Of a DNA stretch of 64,000 bases, positions 7,958 to 55,426 are shown piece after piece (position 1 is the stretch's first letter; each line of letters opens with the position of its first letter). This stretch comes from Pyrinomonadaceae bacterium (GTDB lineage: Bacteria; Acidobacteriota; Blastocatellia; Pyrinomonadales; Pyrinomonadaceae), in NCBI GenBank assembly GCA_021228405.1, contig JAJQRF010000001.1:248001-312000 (forward strand), in the 5' to 3' direction. The position numbers and the translations under genes are program-made. A model generated the notes under the pieces. It searched no databases. It saw only the letters and a program-made list of their open reading frames with translations, and was not told the origin of the DNA.

Positions 7958-9223
7958 ATGACATTTTCATTTAACGCATCGCTTTCCGGCTTAAACGCCA
8001 ATTCAAACGCTTTATCGGTCGTCGGCAACAACATCGCCAACGCCAATACCGTCGGTTTTCGCGGCAGTTCGATTACGTTTTCAGACGTTTTCGCCAATTC
8101 ATACGGCGCACGGCTGAACGGCGCGGGACTTTCTTTGCAGATCGGCGACGGCGTGCAGACTTCCTCCATCCAGACCAATCTCGCGCAGGGAACGCTCGAC
8201 GAATCGGCTTCGTCGCTTCACACGGCGATTCAGGGAAACGGATTTTTCGTGGTCAGACAAAGCGACGAAACGCTTTCCTACACGCGTGCGGGCGACTTTA
8301 CGCTCAACAACGAAGGCTATCTCATCACGCCGCGCGGCGACGAGGTGCAAGGTTATCCCGCGATCGGCGGTGTCATCACGCCGGGTTCGTCTTTGACATC
8401 CCTGCGAATTCCGATCGGGCAAACATTGCCGCCGCAGACGACTTCGAGTGCTTCGATGCGTATTAATCTGAACACGAACGCCGCAACCGGCTCGGAGTTT
8501 CACGCGACGATACAGGTTTATGATTCACGCGGAACGACGCGAACCTTAGACATTAAATACACGCGTCTGGCGGACGGAAGTTTTGACGCAACCGCAACGC
8601 TCGATAATGTTCCGACACAGCTTTCGTCGAACGGCGGCGCATCGGGAACTGCGCCTGTCAATTTTTCGTTCGGTTCAAACGGCGACCTGCTTTCACCGAC
8701 GCAGTTTTCGATTCAGCCTGACCAAACCCAACTCGGCGGCGCGACTCTGCCTTCGATCGAGTTGAATCTGAGAGAGATCAATCCCGACGGTTCGCTCGGC
8801 GGCTTCAATATCGTCAGTTATGCGCGCCCGTCATCGAATTCGGCAAACAATCAGGATGGCTTTCCTCCGGGCGAGCTTTCGGGTTCTTCGATCGATCCGA
8901 GCGGAACGATTCTCGCAATTTTCTCGAACGGGCAAACCCGACCGATCGGACAATATGCACTCGCAACCTTTAATTCTTCCGAAGGTCTTTCGCGGCGCGG
9001 CGACAACCTTTTTGCCGAAACGCTCGCTTCAAACCAAGCAACCATCGGCGCACCCGGTTCGGGCGGTCGCGGTTTGGTTTCGGGCGGATATTTGGAGCGA
9101 AGCAACGTCAATATTACGAACGAATTCGTCAAATTGATCGAAGCCCAACGCGCTTTTCAATCGAATTCCAAAGTAATCAACAGTCTTAACGAAACCTTCC
9201 AATCTTTATTGCAGGTTATTTAA
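7958..9223 (+). CDS. flgE: Flagellar hook protein FlgE
   Basis: FlgE (421 aa) polymerises into the hook. The N-terminal rod/hook signature L-S-G-L-N-A-N with NNIANANTVGFRG (residues about 23-35) is present. The C-terminal FLG_bbr_C block has the expected SNVNITNEFVKLIEAQRAFQ pattern. The start was set at 7958, because AAAGGAGA sits 8-9 bases upstream and translation there begins exactly at the conserved MTFSFNASLSGL. A longer reading frame beginning at 7850 inside flgD is not needed. It is the last gene before a structured 338-base gap ahead of motA. Confidence 0.96.
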   Translation: MTFSFNASLSGLNANSNALSVVGNNIANANTVGFRGSSITFSDVFANSYGARLNGAGLSLQIGDGVQTSSIQTNLAQGTLDESASSLHTAIQGNGFFVVRQSDETLSYTRAGDFTLNNEGYLITPRGDEVQGYPAIGGVITPGSSLTSLRIPIGQTLPPQTTSSASMRINLNTNAATGSEFHATIQVYDSRGTTRTLDIKYTRLADGSFDATATLDNVPTQLSSNGGASGTAPVNFSFGSNGDLLSPTQFSIQPDQTQLGGATLPSIELNLREINPDGSLGGFNIVSYARPSSNSANNQDGFPPGELSGSSIDPSGTILAIFSNGQTRPIGQYALATFNSSEGLSRRGDNLFAETLASNQATIGAPGSGGRGLVSGGYLERSNVNITNEFVKLIEAQRAFQSNSKVINSLNETFQSLLQVI

Positions 9224-9242
9224 GGAAGTTTTTCAAAATGAC

Positions 9243-9330
9243 GAACGCGGATTTGGCGGATAGGGCGGATTATTGCGGATAAATTTTAGAAAATCCGGAT
9301 AAATCCGCCTGATTTGCCAAATCCGCGTTC
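9243..9330. repeat. Inverted intergenic repeat built from GGCGGATT words
   Basis: The left arm begins GAACGCGGATTTGGC at 9243 and contains four copies of a GGCGGAT-like word spaced 8-9 bases apart. The right arm ends GCCAAATCCGCGTTC at 9330 and is the mirror image, with 15 outer bases pairing perfectly. It starts 19 bases after the flgE stop. It belongs to the same architectural class as the other repeat-word hairpins in this window but uses a different word. Confidence 0.85.
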
Positions 9331-9388
9331 AAAAAATCGGTTACTTTTCCTCAAAAGTTTACGCGTAATTTCTAAAGAATTTTAATTT

Positions 9389-48600: not shown

Positions 48601-49670
48601 ACGGAATGCCGCTCGTCGATGCGGTCGTCGATGCCGGCGCGGTGCGTTTTCGACCGATGCTTTTAACGGCGGCGGCAGTCATCGTCGGTTCCGCCGTGAT
48701 GCTTGCCGATCCGATCTTTCAAGGCTTGGCGATTTCCCTGATGGCTGGCGAAGTCGCTTCGCTGTTGCTTTCACGAATGGCGGTTCCCGTTTTGTTTTAT
48801 TTGAGCGAACGCAAAAAAAATGTTGAAACCGTTGCTGGATCGAATGAAAAATCGATTCTTTGCCCGACGGATTTCAGTCCGCAATCGGGAGTTGCATTAA
48901 GCTATGCCGAAAAAATTGCGAATGCTTTCGGTGCGAAACTGAAAATTTTACACGCTCACGAAGCAGATTTACCGCCGTATTTTACCGAATCTCAGCTTGA
49001 TGAAATTGCTTCGGAAGAAAATCAGGTCGAGAATGAAAACATTGTGCAAATAAAAACATTTGCGAAAGAGATTCTCGCACCGGAAACGGATTTCGAGGCA
49101 GTTTTTATAGATGACTCGGTAGTTTCGGCAATTTTGGCGGAAGCCGAAAAAGGCAAAACGCTTTTGATCGCGCTGGGAACCGCTGGACGCGGCGAAATCG
49201 GGAAATTGCGTTTCGGTTCAGTTGCCGAAACTGTTTTGAGAGAGTCCGAAACAGCGGTTTTGACGGCAAACGCAAAGGTAAAAAAAGCGGAAAACGATGA
49301 CATCAAACGCATTATTTGCCCGGTCGATCTTTCAAAGGAATCGGAAAACGCCTTTAAATTTGCGACCGATCTGGCGCAGGCTTTAAACGCCGAATTAACC
49401 GTGATCCGAGTTTTATCGAAAGACGATTCGACCGAAAAGAAGCCGCTTTGCGATTGGATCTCTGATGAGGCAAGGGAAAAATGCAGAATTCGTGAGGTCG
49501 TCAAAAAAGGTGATTACATCGAACAGATTTTCAGCGAAATTGCAGAGCAGAAAGCCGATCTTGTCGTCGTCGGAGTCGATCACGGACTTTTTTCAGACCA
49601 AAGTTTGGGAAAGCAAACCATAAAAATCATCAACGAAGCAAGCTGTCCGATAATTTCCGTTTTTCATTAA
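45630..49670 (+). CDS. RND efflux permease fused to two universal stress protein domains
   Basis: Residues 1-1065 of this 1346-aa protein are a complete RND transporter. They comprise twelve membrane helices, two large periplasmic loops, and helix 4 with [17 protein letters not shown] holding the proton-relay aspartates. After the last helix and a short linker, residues about 1075-1212 form a universal stress protein (USP) domain with the ATP-binding pattern G-x2-G-x9-G-S (from about residue 1182). Residues about 1225-1346 form a second USP domain whose glycine motif is degenerate. Both are cytoplasmic by topology. The reading frame is continuous and the linker natural, so a sequencing join is unlikely. 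Nucleotide or stress control of the pump is the obvious inference. The substrate is unknown. Confidence 0.93.
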
Positions 49671-49760
49671 ATCTTATCAAAACCTACAGAAAATCGGGAG
49701 AATCTTCAATAGTTCGCCCGATTTTTATCTCTCCGAAAAAATTTCTTTCAATTTTTCAAA

Positions 49761-49804
49761 AAAAAATGTCTTGGTTTTCCTTAAAACGTCGCGTTAATAG
49801 ATAG
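49761..49804 (+). promoter_or_regulatory. ECF-type promoter, copy 1
   Basis: ATGTC (49766-49770), 16 bases, then CGTC (49787-49790) continues as ACGTCGCGTTAATAGATAG. The spacing and the CGTC -10 core are those of ECF sigma promoters. A five-bp hairpin with a T8 loop (GGACG/CGTCC) follows at 49805-49822. It lies about 55 bases before the orphan gene at 49862. It is almost identical to copy 2 at 50378-50421. Confidence 0.65.
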
Positions 49805-49861
49805 GGGACGTTTTTTTTCGTCCGGTCTTGTCTGAAAAAAAAATAAGGATTCATAAAATCA

Positions 49862-50311
49862 GTGTTTTTATTACAAGAGCAGCATACCGATATAGAGCAG
49901 CTTAGGGTGGAATTTAATAAGAAATTCAATATTTGCGAAAACGGCACAGGTAACGGAGCGCAATTTTGGGTTCATATTTCAGAGGATAACGACACCTTTG
50001 AGATCATAAGTGACTGGCAGGTAACAATTCGCCATCATTATGAAAATTGGAGCGGAACGATTTCGTCGGAAAAACCGGGGAAAATCTTGCAGACTCCGAA
50101 TTTGTCGGGAATTTTTCACGTCACGGTCACGGCAAAGATCGGAGATAATCCGATTTCGCGCGAAATCGAACCTTTAGAGGGAAGCAATCGAAATATCGGT
50201 TGTAATTCAAATTACGCGGCGATGATCGGGATCGAGGCTTTGCCGAGCGGCGCGGATGCGCGTTACTGGACGGTTTGGGATGCGGTCGAGATGTCGGAAA
50301 ACGAAGATTAG
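49862..50311 (+). CDS. Orphan protein controlled by ECF-type promoter 1
   Basis: This 149-aa protein has no signal peptide, membrane segment or motif I recognise. It is polar, with several Asp/Glu-Asn stretches and two cysteines, and a middle part of alternating hydrophobic residues (WQVTIRHHYENWSG, FHVTVTAKIG) that looks like a beta-sandwich. The start is uncertain: GTG at 49862 follows AAGGA at a long distance. It belongs with the sigma factor and kinase by its promoter and by having a counterpart orphan (54821) at the other end of the cluster. The two orphan proteins are not obviously similar. Confidence 0.65.
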   Translation: MFLLQEQHTDIEQLRVEFNKKFNICENGTGNGAQFWVHISEDNDTFEIISDWQVTIRHHYENWSGTISSEKPGKILQTPNLSGIFHVTVTAKIGDNPISREIEPLEGSNRNIGCNSNYAAMIGIEALPSGADARYWTVWDAVEMSENED

Positions 50312-50377
50312 AAACTTCTTTTTTGAAATTTTCGGATGAAAAAAGATCGAATTTCAAGTCTTTCAAAAAAAAATTGA

Positions 50378-50421
50378 AAAAAATGTCTCCTTTTTTTCAA
50401 AAACGTCGCGTTAATAGATAG
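50378..50421 (+). promoter_or_regulatory. ECF-type promoter, copy 2, upstream of the sigma factor gene
   Basis: ATGTC (50383-50387), 16 bases, CGTC (50404-50407) and the same ACGTCGCGTTAATAGATAG block as copy 1. It is followed by an 8-bp hairpin (TTTTGGTT / AACCAAAA, 50432-50450). It lies 550 bases before the probable sigma start, with a terminator-like hairpin between, and may autoregulate the sigma operon or produce a short leader RNA. Confidence 0.65.
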
Positions 50422-50642
50422 AGGCAATTTTTTTTGGTTGCGAACCAAAACGGATCAGCGGCAATTGGAAACGATTGAATGTAAAGTCAGAACAGAGGGA
50501 AGAAAACGAGTGATTATTATTTTTGAATAAAAAGACAGCAGGACAAATTCGGAGAGGTAATTTATATTGGATTGCCCCCCAAACATTAAAAAATTCTTCT
50601 TATTTGTTTTGCTTAGAGATTAAAAGCCCCCTAACCCCCCGG
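50422..50642 (+). other. Non-coding leader between ECF promoter 2 and the attenuator hairpin
   Basis: No credible gene is visible in this stretch. Only peptides under 20 codons open, the best being a TTG frame at about 50567 after GGAGAGG. Runs of CCCCCC occur near 50575 and 50635. Together with the hairpin that follows, a 300-base untranslated transcript is possible. Confidence 0.4.
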
Positions 50643-50712
50643 AAGCGGCTTTGGTTATAAAAATTAAACAAAGCAATTTTTAAGGTAAATCTAAAGCCGC
50701 TTTTTTAATTCT
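50643..50712 (+). terminator. Terminator-like hairpin inside the sigma factor leader
   Basis: AAGCGGCTTT (50643-50652) pairs with AAAGCCGCTT (about 50693-50702), with a second inner pairing of AAAAATT and AATTTTT. Six T residues follow. It stands between ECF promoter 2 and the sigma gene, so it could end the orphan/leader transcript or act as an attenuator. Confidence 0.65.
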
Positions 50713-50968
50713 GACCTAACGGATATTTGCATTCATAATCGAAGAATTCCGAAATACGGAAGATTCAAATTTTTTAACTAGTAAACCTGCTGAAAATCAG
50801 TCTCTCTAATCAACCTCATTCCAATTGCTGCTAATCCTCACTTTTTTATAAGTTTATGTGACATCAAAGTTTATGGAAATTGCGAAAAGAAATATTTTGA
50901 CTTTGGTTTTGGGTTCCTGTAATCTCACTGTATTAAGTGCGAACTCCCAACGCTTTTTTGGACTTTTG

Positions 50969-51571
50969 ATGTCTCCCGATTCTAATCCAAATGAAGAAAC
51001 GATCGGAAAAGCACGTCTGGAAGAAAGCGATAATCGCCAAACTCTCGACGCGCTGATGCCCTATGTTTACGAAGAACTTCACCGTCAGGCACACCGCTAC
51101 CTGCGTCACGAACGCGCCAATCACACACTTCAAACAACAGCTTTAATCAATGAGGTTTATCTGCGTCTTGCCGTGCAGGAAGAAATGCGTTGGCAAAACA
51201 GGGCGCAGTTTTTCGGCATTGCCGCCAATATGATGCGGCGCATTCTGGTCGATTATGCCAAGTCAAAGCAACGTTTCAAACGCGGCGGCGGCGAGGAAGA
51301 TTTGCCGATCGAAGAAGCAATGACCATTGCGGTCGATACGTCAGGCGAACAGCGAAACATCGATCTGATCCTGCTGGACGAAGCGTTGGATAAACTTTCA
51401 AAGTTTGATGAACGGCAGGCGCGCATCGTCGAACTCAGGTATTTCAGCGGTTTGACCGTCGAGGAAGCCGCCGAAGTTTTGGATCTTTCGGAAAAAACCA
51501 TTGTTCGTGAATGGAAAATTGCCAAGGCTTGGCTCCGTCGCGAAATAAATTCGGAAACTCTTGAGCGATAA
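50969..51571 (+). CDS. ECF-like RNA polymerase sigma factor (TIGR02999 type)
   Basis: This 200-aa sigma factor contains region 2 (LMPYVYEELHRQAHRYL, then ALINEVYLRLA) and region 4 (LRYFSGLTVEEAAEVLDLSEKTIVREWKIAKAWL). It lacks region 3. The NHTLQTTALINEVYLRLA phrase is typical of the TIGR02999 group found beside Ser/Thr kinases in Acidobacteriota and Planctomycetes. The start is uncertain: the ATG at 50969 fits the family length, while an in-frame GTG at 50858 would add 37 residues of unrelated sequence. Its stop overlaps the kinase start by 11 bases. It probably reads the two ECF-style promoters nearby, which would make it autoregulated. Confidence 0.9.
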   Translation: MSPDSNPNEETIGKARLEESDNRQTLDALMPYVYEELHRQAHRYLRHERANHTLQTTALINEVYLRLAVQEEMRWQNRAQFFGIAANMMRRILVDYAKSKQRFKRGGGEEDLPIEEAMTIAVDTSGEQRNIDLILLDEALDKLSKFDERQARIVELRYFSGLTVEEAAEVLDLSEKTIVREWKIAKAWLRREINSETLER

Positions 51572-54500
51572 AAACTGGGAAAATGTTAAAGACCTGTTCA
51601 GCGAGGCGATCGAAAAACCGCCCGAAGAACGCGATGCGTTTCTCGAAAAAGCGTGTGCCGATCAGTCTTTGCGCGAGGAAGTCCGTCAGCTTTTAAGATC
51701 GTATGAAGAAGACGACGAATTTATGGAAAACGCCGCCGTCGGCGAAGTCGCGGACATCATCGTCGCCGAAACGGAAGAGAATCTATTCGATGAACTGGTC
51801 GGTCGTTACGAAATAAAATCACTGCTCGGCGAAGGCGGAATGGGTAAGGTTTATCTGGCAAAAGATACCCAACTCGAACGCCTCGCCGCCGTTAAAATAC
51901 TCCTGACTTACTATTCGGATGACGAACATCGCATCAAACGCTTTTTTCAGGAAGCAAAATCGGCATCTGCGCTCAATCATCCGAATATTCTGACGATCTA
52001 CGAGATCGGAAGCTTCAAGGATACTTATTTCATTGCCACCGAGTATGTCAAAGGCGAAACTCTGCGCCACAGGCAAAAACGCAAACGTCTTTCCCTGAGC
52101 GAGATTGCGAAAATTTCGCTTCAGGTCGTTTCCGCGCTGAAAGCCGCACACGAAGCGAAGATCGTTCACCGTGATATTAAGCCGGAAAACATTATGATCC
52201 GAAAAGACGGTTTGGTGAAAATCCTCGATTTCGGATTGGCAAAACTCGTCGCCGATAAGCAGAACAAACTCGATTCGCAATTCGGCAGAATTAATCTCGT
52301 CAATACGGCTCCGCGCGTCGTTTTGGGAACGGTCGCGTATATGTCGCCGGAGCAGGCGCGCGGAAAACAAACCGATTTTCGGACGGACATCTGGAGTTTC
52401 GGCGTTTGTCTATACGAACTGCTCGCCGGATTTTCACCCTTTAGGGGCGAAACGATGAACGATCAGATCGCTGAAATCCTGACCGTCGAACCAACGCCTC
52501 TGAGTCCCGAAATACCTTCCGAGTTGAAGCGTATCGTCGGCAAATGCTTAAAGAAAAACGCCGACGAACGTTATCGAAATGCGGATGAATTGCTGACCGA
52601 TCTGACCGTTTTTGAAAGCACCTTGCTGGACACCGAACCGACCGAGAAAATAACTTCCTACACGGAGGTTCAAAACACTGCCGGAAATCGTATCAAGACA
52701 ATTTTCACCCAACTGACCGCGCCGACCTTTTTACACAGCTTCCGTTCGGTCGCGTTGGTTTCGGTATTGAGTTTATCACTGATTCTGGCAGTTTTCGGGG
52801 TTTACAGTTTTCGTAAAAATTCGGTTTATGCACCGAATCCCGAAGCTGTCCGGTGGTTTAAGGATGCCGGCGAAGCGGCGCGAAACGGCAACGATTTCAA
52901 AGCGCAAAAAATGCTCGAACAAGCCGTTCGGCTCGATGAAAACTATCTTCCGGCACGGGCAAAACTGGCTGAAATTTGGTTCAACCGCGATTATGAGGAC
53001 AAAGCCGCACAAACGATGCTGAAAGTTACGGAATTGATTCCGCAACTCAAGGGTTTATCGGAAAACGAAGAAACATATATTCTAGCCGTAACCGCCACCG
53101 TTCGGCGCGATTACCGGAATGCACTTGCAAAATATGAAGAACTCGCCGAAAATGCGCCCGAAAACGAAAAAGTCTTCGCACTTTTCGATGTCGGCAAAGC
53201 CTTTGAAAAACTCGAAGATTCCAAACGGGCAACCGAAACTTTTGAGGAAGTCGTCCGGCGCGATCCGCAATTTGCGGCGGCTTATCTGCGGCTTGCTTCG
53301 CTTTACTGGTTCGACGAAAAACGCGACCAATCGCTCGAAGCCTTCCGAAAAGCGGAAACTGTTTATTCGTCGCGCAGTGATTACGACGGGTTAGCCACGC
53401 TTTATTATTTGAAAGGCGGTTTGTTCGGTTACAACGACGAATTTCCCGAAGCCGTAAAAAATTTGGAAAAATCGTTGGAAATTTCCAAAGCGACCAACAA
53501 TTTAGGGCTTGAGATCAGAACAATGCTCGCGCTTGGCGGCGTGAAATTTTCGATCGGTGAAAATCAGCAGGCGCAAGAGATAATCAAAGAAGGTTTGAGC
53601 CTGGCGCAAGCCGAAAACCTCGAATATTTTGCAACCACCGGCTTGATCGATCTCGGAATGGTTTACACGCTGAAAGGCGATTATGCCGAAGCCGAAAAAA
53701 ACGTTCAGCAAGCCTTGCAAATATCACGTGTCAACGGCAGTAAGCTGATCGAAGCACAGGCTTTGACTCTGCTCGGAAGCATCGCGCTTGACAGGATCAA
53801 ACCACGTGAAGCGGTCGCGTATGTCGAACCGGCATTGAAATATTACGATGAAACCAACGCAAAACCGCAAAAAGCCAGATGTTTGCTGATTCTCGGAATT
53901 TCGCTGATCCAGACCGGAAAATATGATCGTGCAATCGAGATTTTAAGGCAATTAAGTGAAAACGCGGTCGAGGCGAACGATCTTAGTTTAAAGGCGCAAG
54001 CCGAGGAAAACATCGGAAACGCGCTCATCCAGACCGGAAATTACAGCGAGGCGTTGGATTATATAAATAAAAGTCTGGAGATCAACCAAAATCTCGGGCT
54101 GGAGCAGAACACCGGATACAATCAAGCTTCGCTGTCACTGATCTTCAGTGAACTCGGCAGACTCAACGAATCTGCCAAACTTTCAAATTTGAGTGAACAA
54201 ACCGCCGTAAAAAGCGAGGACATCAGGCTTGCCGCCGAAATAAATCTCATCAAGGCAAACAAGGCTTTATACGAAAACAATTTTTCGGAAGCGATCAAAC
54301 AAAGCCAACTTGCCGTTCAAAAAATCGAAAACAAAAATTTCGAGATAATAATCTCGGCAAATTTAATATATTCCCTTGCGGAACTGCGTCGTGATAATAT
54401 AGCTAAAGCCGATGAATATTTTTCAAAGGCTGAAGATGTTTTGACCAATTCCGAAAACCCGAAAACTTCCGCTGAGTTTCAGTTGGTCAAATCCGAAATC

Positions 54501-54785
54501 TTAATCAAAAAAAATCTCCCTGATGAGGCGTTGTCGGCGGCATTGAGTGCCAGAGAAAAATTTGCTTCGTTAAAAAACAAACCTTCAGAATGGCGTTCCG
54601 CTGCAATGGCTTTGATAGCCGTTTCAATGCTGAAAGACACGCAAAAAATTTCGGAATTCAAATCCGAATCTGCAACACTTTTCAATTCTCTGAATCAACT
54701 TTGGGGAAATGAAAACTTCCAGAAATTTCGTTTGAGAAAGGATATTGCACTTTTGCTTTCTCAAACCGACAAGATTGAAGGGTAA
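51561..54785 (+). CDS. Membrane Ser/Thr protein kinase with TPR sensor region
   Basis: This 1074-aa protein begins at a TTG inside the sigma gene. Residues 1-60 are a conserved helical segment found in sigma-associated kinases. The kinase domain (about 82-345) has GEGGMGKVY, the AVKIL lysine, HRDIKPEN, DFGLAK and SPEQARG, so it should be active. One membrane helix (about 394-415) follows, then about 14 TPR-like helical repeats (about 430-1040) on the outer side by topology. Such kinases are thought to phosphorylate or release the partner sigma factor after the TPR region senses a signal. No zinc-finger anti-sigma gene is present, which favours control by phosphorylation. Confidence 0.93.
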   Translation: MSDKNWENVKDLFSEAIEKPPEERDAFLEKACADQSLREEVRQLLRSYEEDDEFMENAAVGEVADIIVAETEENLFDELVGRYEIKSLLGEGGMGKVYLAKDTQLERLAAVKILLTYYSDDEHRIKRFFQEAKSASALNHPNILTIYEIGSFKDTYFIATEYVKGETLRHRQKRKRLSLSEIAKISLQVVSALKAAHEAKIVHRDIKPENIMIRKDGLVKILDFGLAKLVADKQNKLDSQFGRINLVNTAPRVVLGTVAYMSPEQARGKQTDFRTDIWSFGVCLYELLAGFSPFRGETMNDQIAEILTVEPTPLSPEIPSELKRIVGKCLKKNADERYRNADELLTDLTVFESTLLDTEPTEKITSYTEVQNTAGNRIKTIFTQLTAPTFLHSFRSVALVSVLSLSLILAVFGVYSFRKNSVYAPNPEAVRWFKDAGEAARNGNDFKAQKMLEQAVRLDENYLPARAKLAEIWFNRDYEDKAAQTMLKVTELIPQLKGLSENEETYILAVTATVRRDYRNALAKYEELAENAPENEKVFALFDVGKAFEKLEDSKRATETFEEVVRRDPQFAAAYLRLASLYWFDEKRDQSLEAFRKAETVYSSRSDYDGLATLYYLKGGLFGYNDEFPEAVKNLEKSLEISKATNNLGLEIRTMLALGGVKFSIGENQQAQEIIKEGLSLAQAENLEYFATTGLIDLGMVYTLKGDYAEAEKNVQQALQISRVNGSKLIEAQALTLLGSIALDRIKPREAVAYVEPALKYYDETNAKPQKARCLLILGISLIQTGKYDRAIEILRQLSENAVEANDLSLKAQAEENIGNALIQTGNYSEALDYINKSLEINQNLGLEQNTGYNQASLSLIFSELGRLNESAKLSNLSEQTAVKSEDIRLAAEINLIKANKALYENNFSEAIKQSQLAVQKIENKNFEIIISANLIYSLAELRRDNIAKADEYFSKAEDVLTNSENPKTSAEFQLVKSEILIKKNLPDEALSAALSAREKFASLKNKPSEWRSAAMALIAVSMLKDTQKISEFKSESATLFNSLNQLWGNENFQKFRLRKDIALLLSQTDKIEG

Positions 54786-54820: not shown

Positions 54821-55426
54821 ATGAGTTATCAAGAAAATCCCAGTGAAACTGTAAATGATTGTGAAATGTTGCCGGGAACTACGGTTCGTGTCAAAACTAA
54901 ACCCAAAATCGCTTCTCAGGAAGAAACAACCGATCAGGATTTTTACATCGAGATCAGCTTACCCAATAACGTCGCAGTGGTTCAAAGCGGTCAGGGAAAT
55001 GAATGGACGCTGAGTGATATTCCATTGACAACGTCTATACAGGAAATCGTTATTCAGGAAGGAAATTCTCAAAGCAAGGACTACGAAGAAACCAGTCTGA
55101 ACACGACTACTTATTCCTGCCCGAAAAGAGTTGAAATATATACGGTTGACGACCCGACGGCTCCGCCGTATCTGGTTTTTCAGGAAGTTATCAATAAAGG
55201 CGTGACGGGTTGGCAGATTTATGCTCCAGTTCCCTTTATTATCCAAACGTCGGGCGGAAACGACAGTTGGATGACGGCGATTTCGAGTGAGTATGTCACG
55301 ATGAAACAAGTCGTGGTTTTTGATAATTGTAACTACAGCATTCAACAGCCGCCGCCGCCGGGCGCGGCTCCATTATTTGATATGGGGACGCAATCGGTTC
55401 TGACCGAAGTAGATATTCAAAGTTAA
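54821..55426 (+). CDS. Orphan protein at the end of the sigma-kinase cluster
   Basis: This 201-aa protein shows no recognised domain, signal peptide or membrane segment. It is acidic, with many Thr, Gln and Val residues suggesting beta structure. A proline run (QQPPPPGAAP) precedes the last 20 residues. AAGGAG lies eight bases before the ATG, and it begins 36 bases after the kinase stop, so it is very likely in the same transcript. It may be a substrate or effector of the kinase. A weak hairpin follows; the next gene is convergent. Confidence 0.8.
   Translation: MSYQENPSETVNDCEMLPGTTVRVKTKPKIASQEETTDQDFYIEISLPNNVAVVQSGQGNEWTLSDIPLTTSIQEIVIQEGNSQSKDYEETSLNTTTYSCPKRVEIYTVDDPTAPPYLVFQEVINKGVTGWQIYAPVPFIIQTSGGNDSWMTAISSEYVTMKQVVVFDNCNYSIQQPPPPGAAPLFDMGTQSVLTEVDIQS

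What the first reader, a model, noticed from the sequence alone, without database searches (positions are those of the whole stretch)
49761..50421. Two near-identical ECF-style promoters with conserved initial transcribed sequence
ATGTC, a 16-nt spacer and ACGTCGCGTTAATAGATAG occur at 49766 and 50383. Conservation continues about 14 bases beyond the CGTC core, into what would be the 5' end of the RNA, and each copy is directly followed by a different small hairpin with a strong stem. Conserved leader plus variable hairpin implies a defined regulon signature for the adjacent TIGR02999 sigma factor, whose promoter motif is, to my knowledge, not well described.
Basis: partly seen in the sequence, partly recalled or inferred. 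Interest (0 to 1): 0.72.

Follow-up and report, generated by a model that had tools for sequence, protein, structure and literature searches.

The report
Promoter signature of a kinase-linked sigma
Two near-identical DNA signals next to a sigma-factor gene are most likely promoters read by that kinase-linked type of sigma factor; the same signal recurs at about nine places in this genome and beside sister sigma genes in related genomes, so an uncharacterised control circuit now has a readable address label.

Summary
In detail: ATGTC-N16-CGTCGCGTTAATAGATAG occurs exactly at 49766-49804 and 50383-50421. Both copies happen to be 12-codon ORFs, so I tested a leader peptide first; other copies speak against it. 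A sequence model built only from seven own-genome copies (blind to relatives) hit 26 places in 14 related genomes. Nine of these lie within 500 nt of a TIGR02999 sigma gene (0.15 expected, P about 2e-14), all either upstream and divergent from the sigma gene or directly downstream on its strand. In this genome the only two of 13 TIGR02999 genes with the motif nearby are sister paralogues. Across 27 sites the element reads TTGA(C/A)C or ATGTCC, N16-17, (C/T)GTCGCG(T/C)TAATAAATAGAGG: an ECF-type promoter whose conservation runs well past the -10. The sigma factors carry QTTA, the ECF43 hallmark linked to activation by Hanks kinases. Hairpins after the element are a trend, not a rule (7 of 27 significant). 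Targets are mostly orphans, three with weak toxin-domain similarity; one relative's hit precedes vgrG. Transcript starts and sigma dependence are not shown. No published promoter for this sigma subfamily was found in the open library.

The parts
49766..49790 (+). Predicted promoter 1: -35 element ATGTC (49766-49770), 16-nt spacer with a T-tract then an A-tract, -10 element CGTC (49787-49790)
   Evidence: Exact match and recurrence; model score 41-46 bits
49791..49804 (+). Extended conserved element GCGTTAATAGATAG: discriminator plus predicted initial transcribed sequence (start site inferred around 49797-49799)
   Evidence: Conserved in 26 aligned sites across genera; start position inferred from ECF promoter geometry
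49806..49823 (+). Hairpin GGACG-TTTTTTTT-CGTCC, part of a longer fold 49798-49834
   Evidence: RNA fold z -3.5; listed as terminator-like by the simple scan, with a poor T-tail
49862..50311 (+). 149-aa orphan ORF (GTG start, SD), predicted target of promoter 1
   Evidence: No Pfam, NCBIfam or PADLOC hit; single-sequence fold uninformative, pLDDT 38
50383..50407 (+). Predicted promoter 2: ATGTC (50383-50387), 16-nt spacer, CGTC (50404-50407)
   Evidence: Exact match; best model score in the genome, 48 bits
50408..50421 (+). Extended conserved element GCGTTAATAGATAG of promoter 2
50432..50450 (+). Weak hairpin TTTTGGTTGCGAACCAAAA downstream of promoter 2
   Evidence: Fold -5.5 kcal/mol, z -1.0
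50969..51571 (+). TIGR02999 ECF sigma factor (ORF open from 50858), QTTA in region 2.2; predicted to read the motif; its own promoter is possibly promoter 2, with a leader of over 400 nt
   Evidence: TIGR02999 189 bits, cut-off 126; PF07638 E=2e-46; sister of the only other motif-adjacent sigma
51561..54785 (+). Hanks-type Ser/Thr kinase with TPR region, overlapping the sigma gene end; predicted activator of the sigma factor
   Evidence: PF00069 E=1.9e-56 plus TPR families
54821..55426 (+). 201-aa orphan ORF after the kinase gene, possible member of the same operon
   Evidence: No family above cut-off

Best explanation
The two repeats are promoters of one regulon, read by RNA polymerase carrying a TIGR02999 (ECF43-type) sigma factor: the window's own sigma at 50969-51571, its sister paralogue elsewhere in the genome, or both. 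Shown here: the element is a bipartite DNA motif with near-fixed spacing, sits upstream of genes, recurs in this genome and in related genera, and is strongly and geometrically tied to TIGR02999 sigma genes. Inferred: sigma domain 4 binds ATGTCC/TTGACC, domain 2 binds CGTC, transcription starts about 7-9 nt after CGTC, and the RNA begins with the conserved AAUARAUAGRGG, often followed by a small hairpin. Inferred from ECF43 literature: the sigma is inert until the neighbouring Hanks kinase phosphorylates the Thr of QTTA. It then transcribes the orphan gene at 49862, probably its own sigma-kinase operon, and dispersed targets.
For: Nine own-genome sites, most 30-110 nt upstream of a start codon, usually with SD. 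Model R2, built only from seven own-genome sites, hits relatives with 9 of 26 within 500 nt of a TIGR02999 gene (0.15 expected). Orientation is regular: upstream and divergent, or downstream on the same strand before the kinase gene. Retrained model R3: 8 of 22 unseen hits lie equally close, plus three in two further genomes. Of 13 TIGR02999 genes in this genome only two have the motif nearby and they are sisters (UFboot 86, SH-aLRT 99). Motif-linked sigmas cluster on the tree, 5 label changes against 8.4 shuffled. In relatives the -35 reads TTGAAC, TTGACC or TTGAGC and spacing is 16-17 nt. QTTA hallmark.
Against: No transcript start or sigma-deletion data exist. Eleven of 13 TIGR02999 genes in this genome lack the motif, so the link is to a subset. 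Motif-linked sigmas in relatives span several subclades, so which sigma reads which site is open. The motif does not sit directly upstream of the sigma genes in relatives, so autoregulation is not general. The sister sigma has no adjacent kinase gene. One own-genome site (C13) has no gene within 600 nt. Conservation downstream of the -10 is partly a product of searching with models that include it.
Confidence: 0.85

Rival explanations
1. The repeats are short leader ORFs (MSWFSLKRRVNR* and MSPFFQKRRVNR*) upstream of regulated genes, acting by translation of a conserved peptide.
For: Both copies begin with ATG and end with TAG exactly at the conserved boundaries; an in-frame TAG, TGA or TAA at codon 12 or 13 is present in about 22 of 27 sites.
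Against: No start codon in about 10 of 27 sites, and spacing varies by one base, which shifts the frame. Third codon positions are the most conserved (CGC GTT invariant in all eight own copies then known) while codon 8 changes non-synonymously (CGT/TGT/TGC/CTC). The stop is expected from a T followed by a purine tract. It would not explain the link to sigma genes.
Confidence: 0.05
2. The motif is a promoter or operator for another regulator that merely tends to sit next to sigma-kinase loci (a different ECF paralogue, or a DNA-binding activator).
For: Motif-linked sigmas in relatives come from several subclades; 17 of 26 blind hits are not near a TIGR02999 gene, although some of those are chance.
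Against: Two-part layout, 16-17 nt spacing and a GAAC-like -35 are those of ECF promoters, and the adjacency is to the sigma gene itself with a fixed geometry.
Confidence: 0.08
3. A dispersed repeat or local duplication without regulatory function.
For: Two near-identical copies 617 nt apart.
Against: Flanks are unrelated; other copies differ in the spacer but keep the two boxes; placed upstream of genes; shared across genera.
Confidence: 0.02

Closest known systems
ECF43 sigma factors with Hanks kinases (EcfP/PknT of Vibrio parahaemolyticus, EcfK/PknS of Xanthomonas citri)
   Same: Sigma gene beside or overlapping a Hanks kinase gene, QTTA in region 2.2 in place of the acidic DAED motif (PMC13147305, PMC8999054). 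EcfK controls a T6SS; here one relative's motif hit precedes vgrG.
   Different: The passages read of these papers give no promoter consensus; here one is derived, with an extended conserved start region. The sister sigma lacks an adjacent kinase gene.
ECF41 promoters (TGTCACA-N16-CGTC)
   Same: TGTC ... CGTC with 16+/-1 nt spacing (PMC3426412).
   Different: No CACA after TGTC; relatives have TTGA(A/C/G)C; the sigma shows no C-terminal extension domain in Pfam; conservation extends about 14 nt past CGTC.
Generic ECF promoters (GAAC-like -35, CGTC-like -10)
   Same: Box identity and spacing in the relatives.
   Different: Strong T-tract and A-tract inside the spacer, and the conserved GCGTTAATAAATAGAGG block.

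Membership tests
ECF43-type (kinase-linked) ECF sigma | ECF sigma of the TIGR02999/PF07638 type | tested here: met
   TIGR02999 189 bits over cut-off 126; PF07638 E=2e-46
ECF43-type (kinase-linked) ECF sigma | QTTA/STTA in place of the acidic DAED motif in region 2.2 | tested here: met
   HTLQTTALINE in L108 and L110; of 12 motif-linked relatives nine have QTTA, one QTTE and two QPTA
ECF43-type (kinase-linked) ECF sigma | Hanks kinase gene next to the sigma gene | tested here: met
   Window sigma overlaps the kinase gene; not so for the sister sigma L108
ECF43-type (kinase-linked) ECF sigma | Placement in group ECF43 by the published ECF classification models | not testable with these tools
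   Those models are not held
ECF43-type (kinase-linked) ECF sigma | Activation by phosphorylation of the region 2.2 Thr | not testable with these tools
   Biochemistry needed
ECF-dependent promoter | Two boxes with 16-17 nt spacing, upstream of genes, linked to the sigma gene | tested here: met
ECF-dependent promoter | Transcription starts 5-10 nt after the -10 box in a sigma-dependent way | not testable with these tools
   No RNA data
ECF41 promoter | -35 TGTCACA and a sigma with a C-terminal extension | tested here: not met
   TGTCTT, TGTCTC, TGTCCT, TGTCCG at the -35; no extension domain in Pfam
Leader peptide / uORF | Conserved start codon and coding-type substitution pattern | tested here: not met
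   No start in about 10 of 27 sites; third codon positions most conserved
Rfam RNA family | Match above gathering score | tested here: not met
   No match in 49600-51100

The most novel reading that the evidence does not exclude
An ECF43-type promoter class with a third, sigma-specific element: the block GCGTTAATAAATAGAGG from discriminator into the first transcribed bases is read by the holoenzyme or acts in the RNA 5' end, often followed by a hairpin, and in this lineage it drives a kinase-switched set of toxin-like, possibly injected, orphan proteins.
Probability: 0.25. Interest if true: 0.72.

Novelty: new variant of a known kind. Interest (0 to 1): 0.58.

Why it matters
Kinase-linked ECF sigma factors are numerous in this lineage (13 TIGR02999 genes here; 4 to 39 matches in each of the 14 relatives searched), yet I found no published promoter for this subfamily. 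A motif that can be searched for turns them into predictable regulons, points to their targets (orphans, toxin-domain-like proteins, a vgrG in a relative) and gives a direct reporter for testing activation by phosphorylation outside Proteobacteria. Conservation into the transcribed start is unusual for ECF promoters (own knowledge) and can be tested by mutation.

Tried and rejected
1) Leader peptide: pursued first because both copies are perfect 12-codon ORFs; dropped after collecting more copies. 2) Exact and 3-mismatch pattern searches in relatives found nothing convincing, because the relatives' -35 and -10 differ; profile models were needed. 3) Collection scans: genome contigs gave 8 hits, in coding or unrelated DNA and about the number expected by chance (my estimate); viral contigs gave one hit with a mis-spaced pattern and none with the right one. 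4) Single-sequence structure predictions of two target proteins were useless (pLDDT 38 and 29). 5) Sigma-70 promoter and Rfam scans: nothing informative. 6) A hit inside kinase coding sequence near sigma L102 (C7:186784) was judged chance. 7) A near-match at C4:237697 (L049) has no stop and looks like coding sequence; discarded.

Full report
OBSERVATION. ATGTC starts at 49766 and 50383; CGTCGCGTTAATAGATAG lies at 49787-49804 and 50404-50421, with 16 nt between ATGTC and CGTC (15 nt to the A before it). The 18-mer with up to three mismatches averages 0.03 hits in shuffles of the window. Flanks beyond the repeat are unrelated apart from A/T richness.

A TRAP TESTED FIRST. Each copy is also a perfect 12-codon ORF, MSWFSLKRRVNR* and MSPFFQKRRVNR*, with conservation apparently bounded by ATG and TAG. 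Two more own-genome copies (reading MSSFSQNRRVNK* and MSVFFSFCRVNS*) seemed to agree. Further copies did not: C4:1090237 has no stop, C4:394207 starts TTG, codon 8 changes non-synonymously (CGT, TGT, TGC, CTC) and CGC GTT never changes at third positions. In relatives about 10 of 27 sites lack any start codon and some spacers are one base shorter. The in-frame stop, present in about 22 of 27 sites as TAG, TGA or TAA, follows from a T and a purine tract. I give the peptide reading 5%.

MORE COPIES IN THIS GENOME. A sequence-only profile of six copies (R1) finds seven clear sites in 5.7 Mb: E 3e-12 to 7e-9 for the six training sites and 1.7e-4 for the next, then a drop to 0.04. Two weaker ones (C7:794892 and C7:544252) pass with the final model. 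Sites and nearest genes on the same strand: 49766, 149-aa orphan; 50383, the sigma-kinase operon over 400 nt downstream, with no clear ORF between; C4:352492(-), 182-aa deaminase-like protein (PF00383 E=2e-5, just under the cut-off); C19:82805(-), 239-aa HNH-like protein (PF01844 E=5e-4, just under), near an integrase-like gene; C4:1090237, 154-aa protein with weak similarity to the CdiA-CT RNase A domain (E=0.006, under the cut-off); C4:394207, 486-aa protein followed by a paralogue; C13:53224, no convincing gene within 600 nt; C7:794892, exported CarboxypepD_reg protein; C7:544252, an ATG about 60 nt downstream. The toxin-like labels are weak single-domain similarities.

LINK TO TIGR02999 SIGMA GENES. 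This genome has 13 TIGR02999 genes over the cut-off. Only two have the motif within about 1.5 kb: the window's (L110) and C4:393549 (L108), where the motif lies between the divergent sigma gene and its neighbour. Among the 13 these two are sisters (UFboot 86, SH-aLRT 99). Model R2, from the seven own-genome sites only, was run over 140 relatives, giving 26 hits in 14 other genomes at E<=0.02. Against the listed TIGR02999 coordinates of those genomes, 9 of 26 lie within 500 nt of a sigma gene; 0.15 are expected (P 2.5e-14, still 1e-9 if the base rate were 2%). Two of the nine share one sigma gene. All nine obey one of two geometries: upstream and divergent from the sigma gene, or just downstream on its strand; in the latter loci a kinase gene follows. 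R3, retrained on 27 sites, found 22 further hits in genomes with known sigma coordinates, 8 within 500 nt (P 4e-13), and both-sided arrangements in G045:C159 and G037:C154. R3 is not blind, since its training set contains sigma-adjacent sites; R2 is blind to relatives, although three of its seven own-genome training sites lie near sigma genes.

ANATOMY. Over 26 anchored sites: A/T-rich upstream, TG at -22/-21 from the (T/C)CGCG block, C-rich -19/-18, T-tract -15 to -11, A-tract -6 to -4, then (C/T)GTCGCG(T/C)TAATAAATAGAGG. In relatives the -35 is TTGAAC, TTGACC, TTGAGC or ATGTCC, close to ordinary ECF -35 boxes; this genome's ATGTCC is the local variant. Conservation continues to offset +18 and then falls towards background. 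Two cautions: models that contain these columns favour hits that keep them, and the transcription start is inferred.

HAIRPINS. Copy 1 folds strongly (z -3.5), copy 2 not (z -1.0). For 27 sites mean z is -0.94 (s.e. 0.29) against 0.00 in a downstream control (P 0.004) and -0.29 upstream (P 0.06); 7 of 27 are individually significant. Thirteen sites not used for the model repeat this (-1.09 against 0.09 downstream, P 0.018; no difference from upstream). So a hairpin after the element is a tendency with changing sequence, not a defining part.

MECHANISM. Sigma factors of this type sit beside Hanks kinases; EcfP and EcfK are activated by phosphorylation, in EcfP of a Thr in region 2.2, where acidic residues are replaced by STTA or QTTA (PMC8999054, PMC13147305). 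The window's sigma and its sister have HTLQTTAL, and of the 12 motif-linked sigmas of relatives examined nine have QTTA, one QTTE and two QPTA. The kinase overlaps the window's sigma gene. Most likely: a signal activates the kinase, the kinase activates the sigma, and the sigma opens these promoters. Shown: motif, distribution, linkage, family of the sigma and kinase. Inferred: recognition, start site, phosphorylation switch, autoregulation by promoter 2.

KNOWN OR NEW. ECF41 promoters share TGTC-N16-CGTC but have TGTCACA (PMC3426412) and a different sigma. No paper in the open library mentions TIGR02999, and the ECF43 texts read gave no promoter consensus. That library lacks most subscription journals, and the original EcfP and ECF-classification papers did not come up in the searches, so absence of a published motif is not proved. 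EcfK of Xanthomonas citri drives a T6SS; a weak R3 hit in relative G037 (E 0.005) precedes vgrG, and several targets here look like toxin domains. That parallel is suggestive only.

LIMITS. Assignment of motif variants to sigma subclades was not done; motif-linked sigmas cluster but do not form one clade (5 changes against 8.4 shuffled). The sigma list was truncated at its weak end, which can only lower the count of adjacent hits.

Noticed in passing
L043:4858-5406(-), L044:4513-5232(-), L121:4311-4775(+): Three predicted targets are small orphan proteins with weak, below-cut-off similarity to deaminase, HNH and CdiA-CT RNase A domains, hinting at a regulon of toxin-like proteins.
   Followed up: partly
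L175:1-1467(-) (relative G037:C17): A weak motif hit with a strong GC hairpin stands upstream of a VgrG/baseplate-hub gene (PF05954 E=6e-85), recalling ECF43 control of a T6SS in Xanthomonas citri.
   Followed up: partly
L119:6291-7751 and 7967-9370 (+): Tandem paralogues of 486 and 467 aa, divergent from sigma L108 and behind a motif copy, with no Pfam family above the cut-off.
   Followed up: no
L123:97-702(-) and L168:863-1426(-): Two relatives carry the motif before closely similar exported cupin-like proteins, one divergent from the sigma gene, the other elsewhere.
   Followed up: no
L121:3446-4165 region (also L055): Repeated short genes for an exported peptide (MKK..KKIA.ALVLTS.CSLTIFAG..) with nearby paralogous TPR-like proteins; looks like a locally amplified family.
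   Followed up: no
L170:952-1449(-): 166-aa protein behind a motif-like site with a strong hairpin; by eye it resembles a papain-like cysteine protease, but no Pfam match.
   Followed up: no
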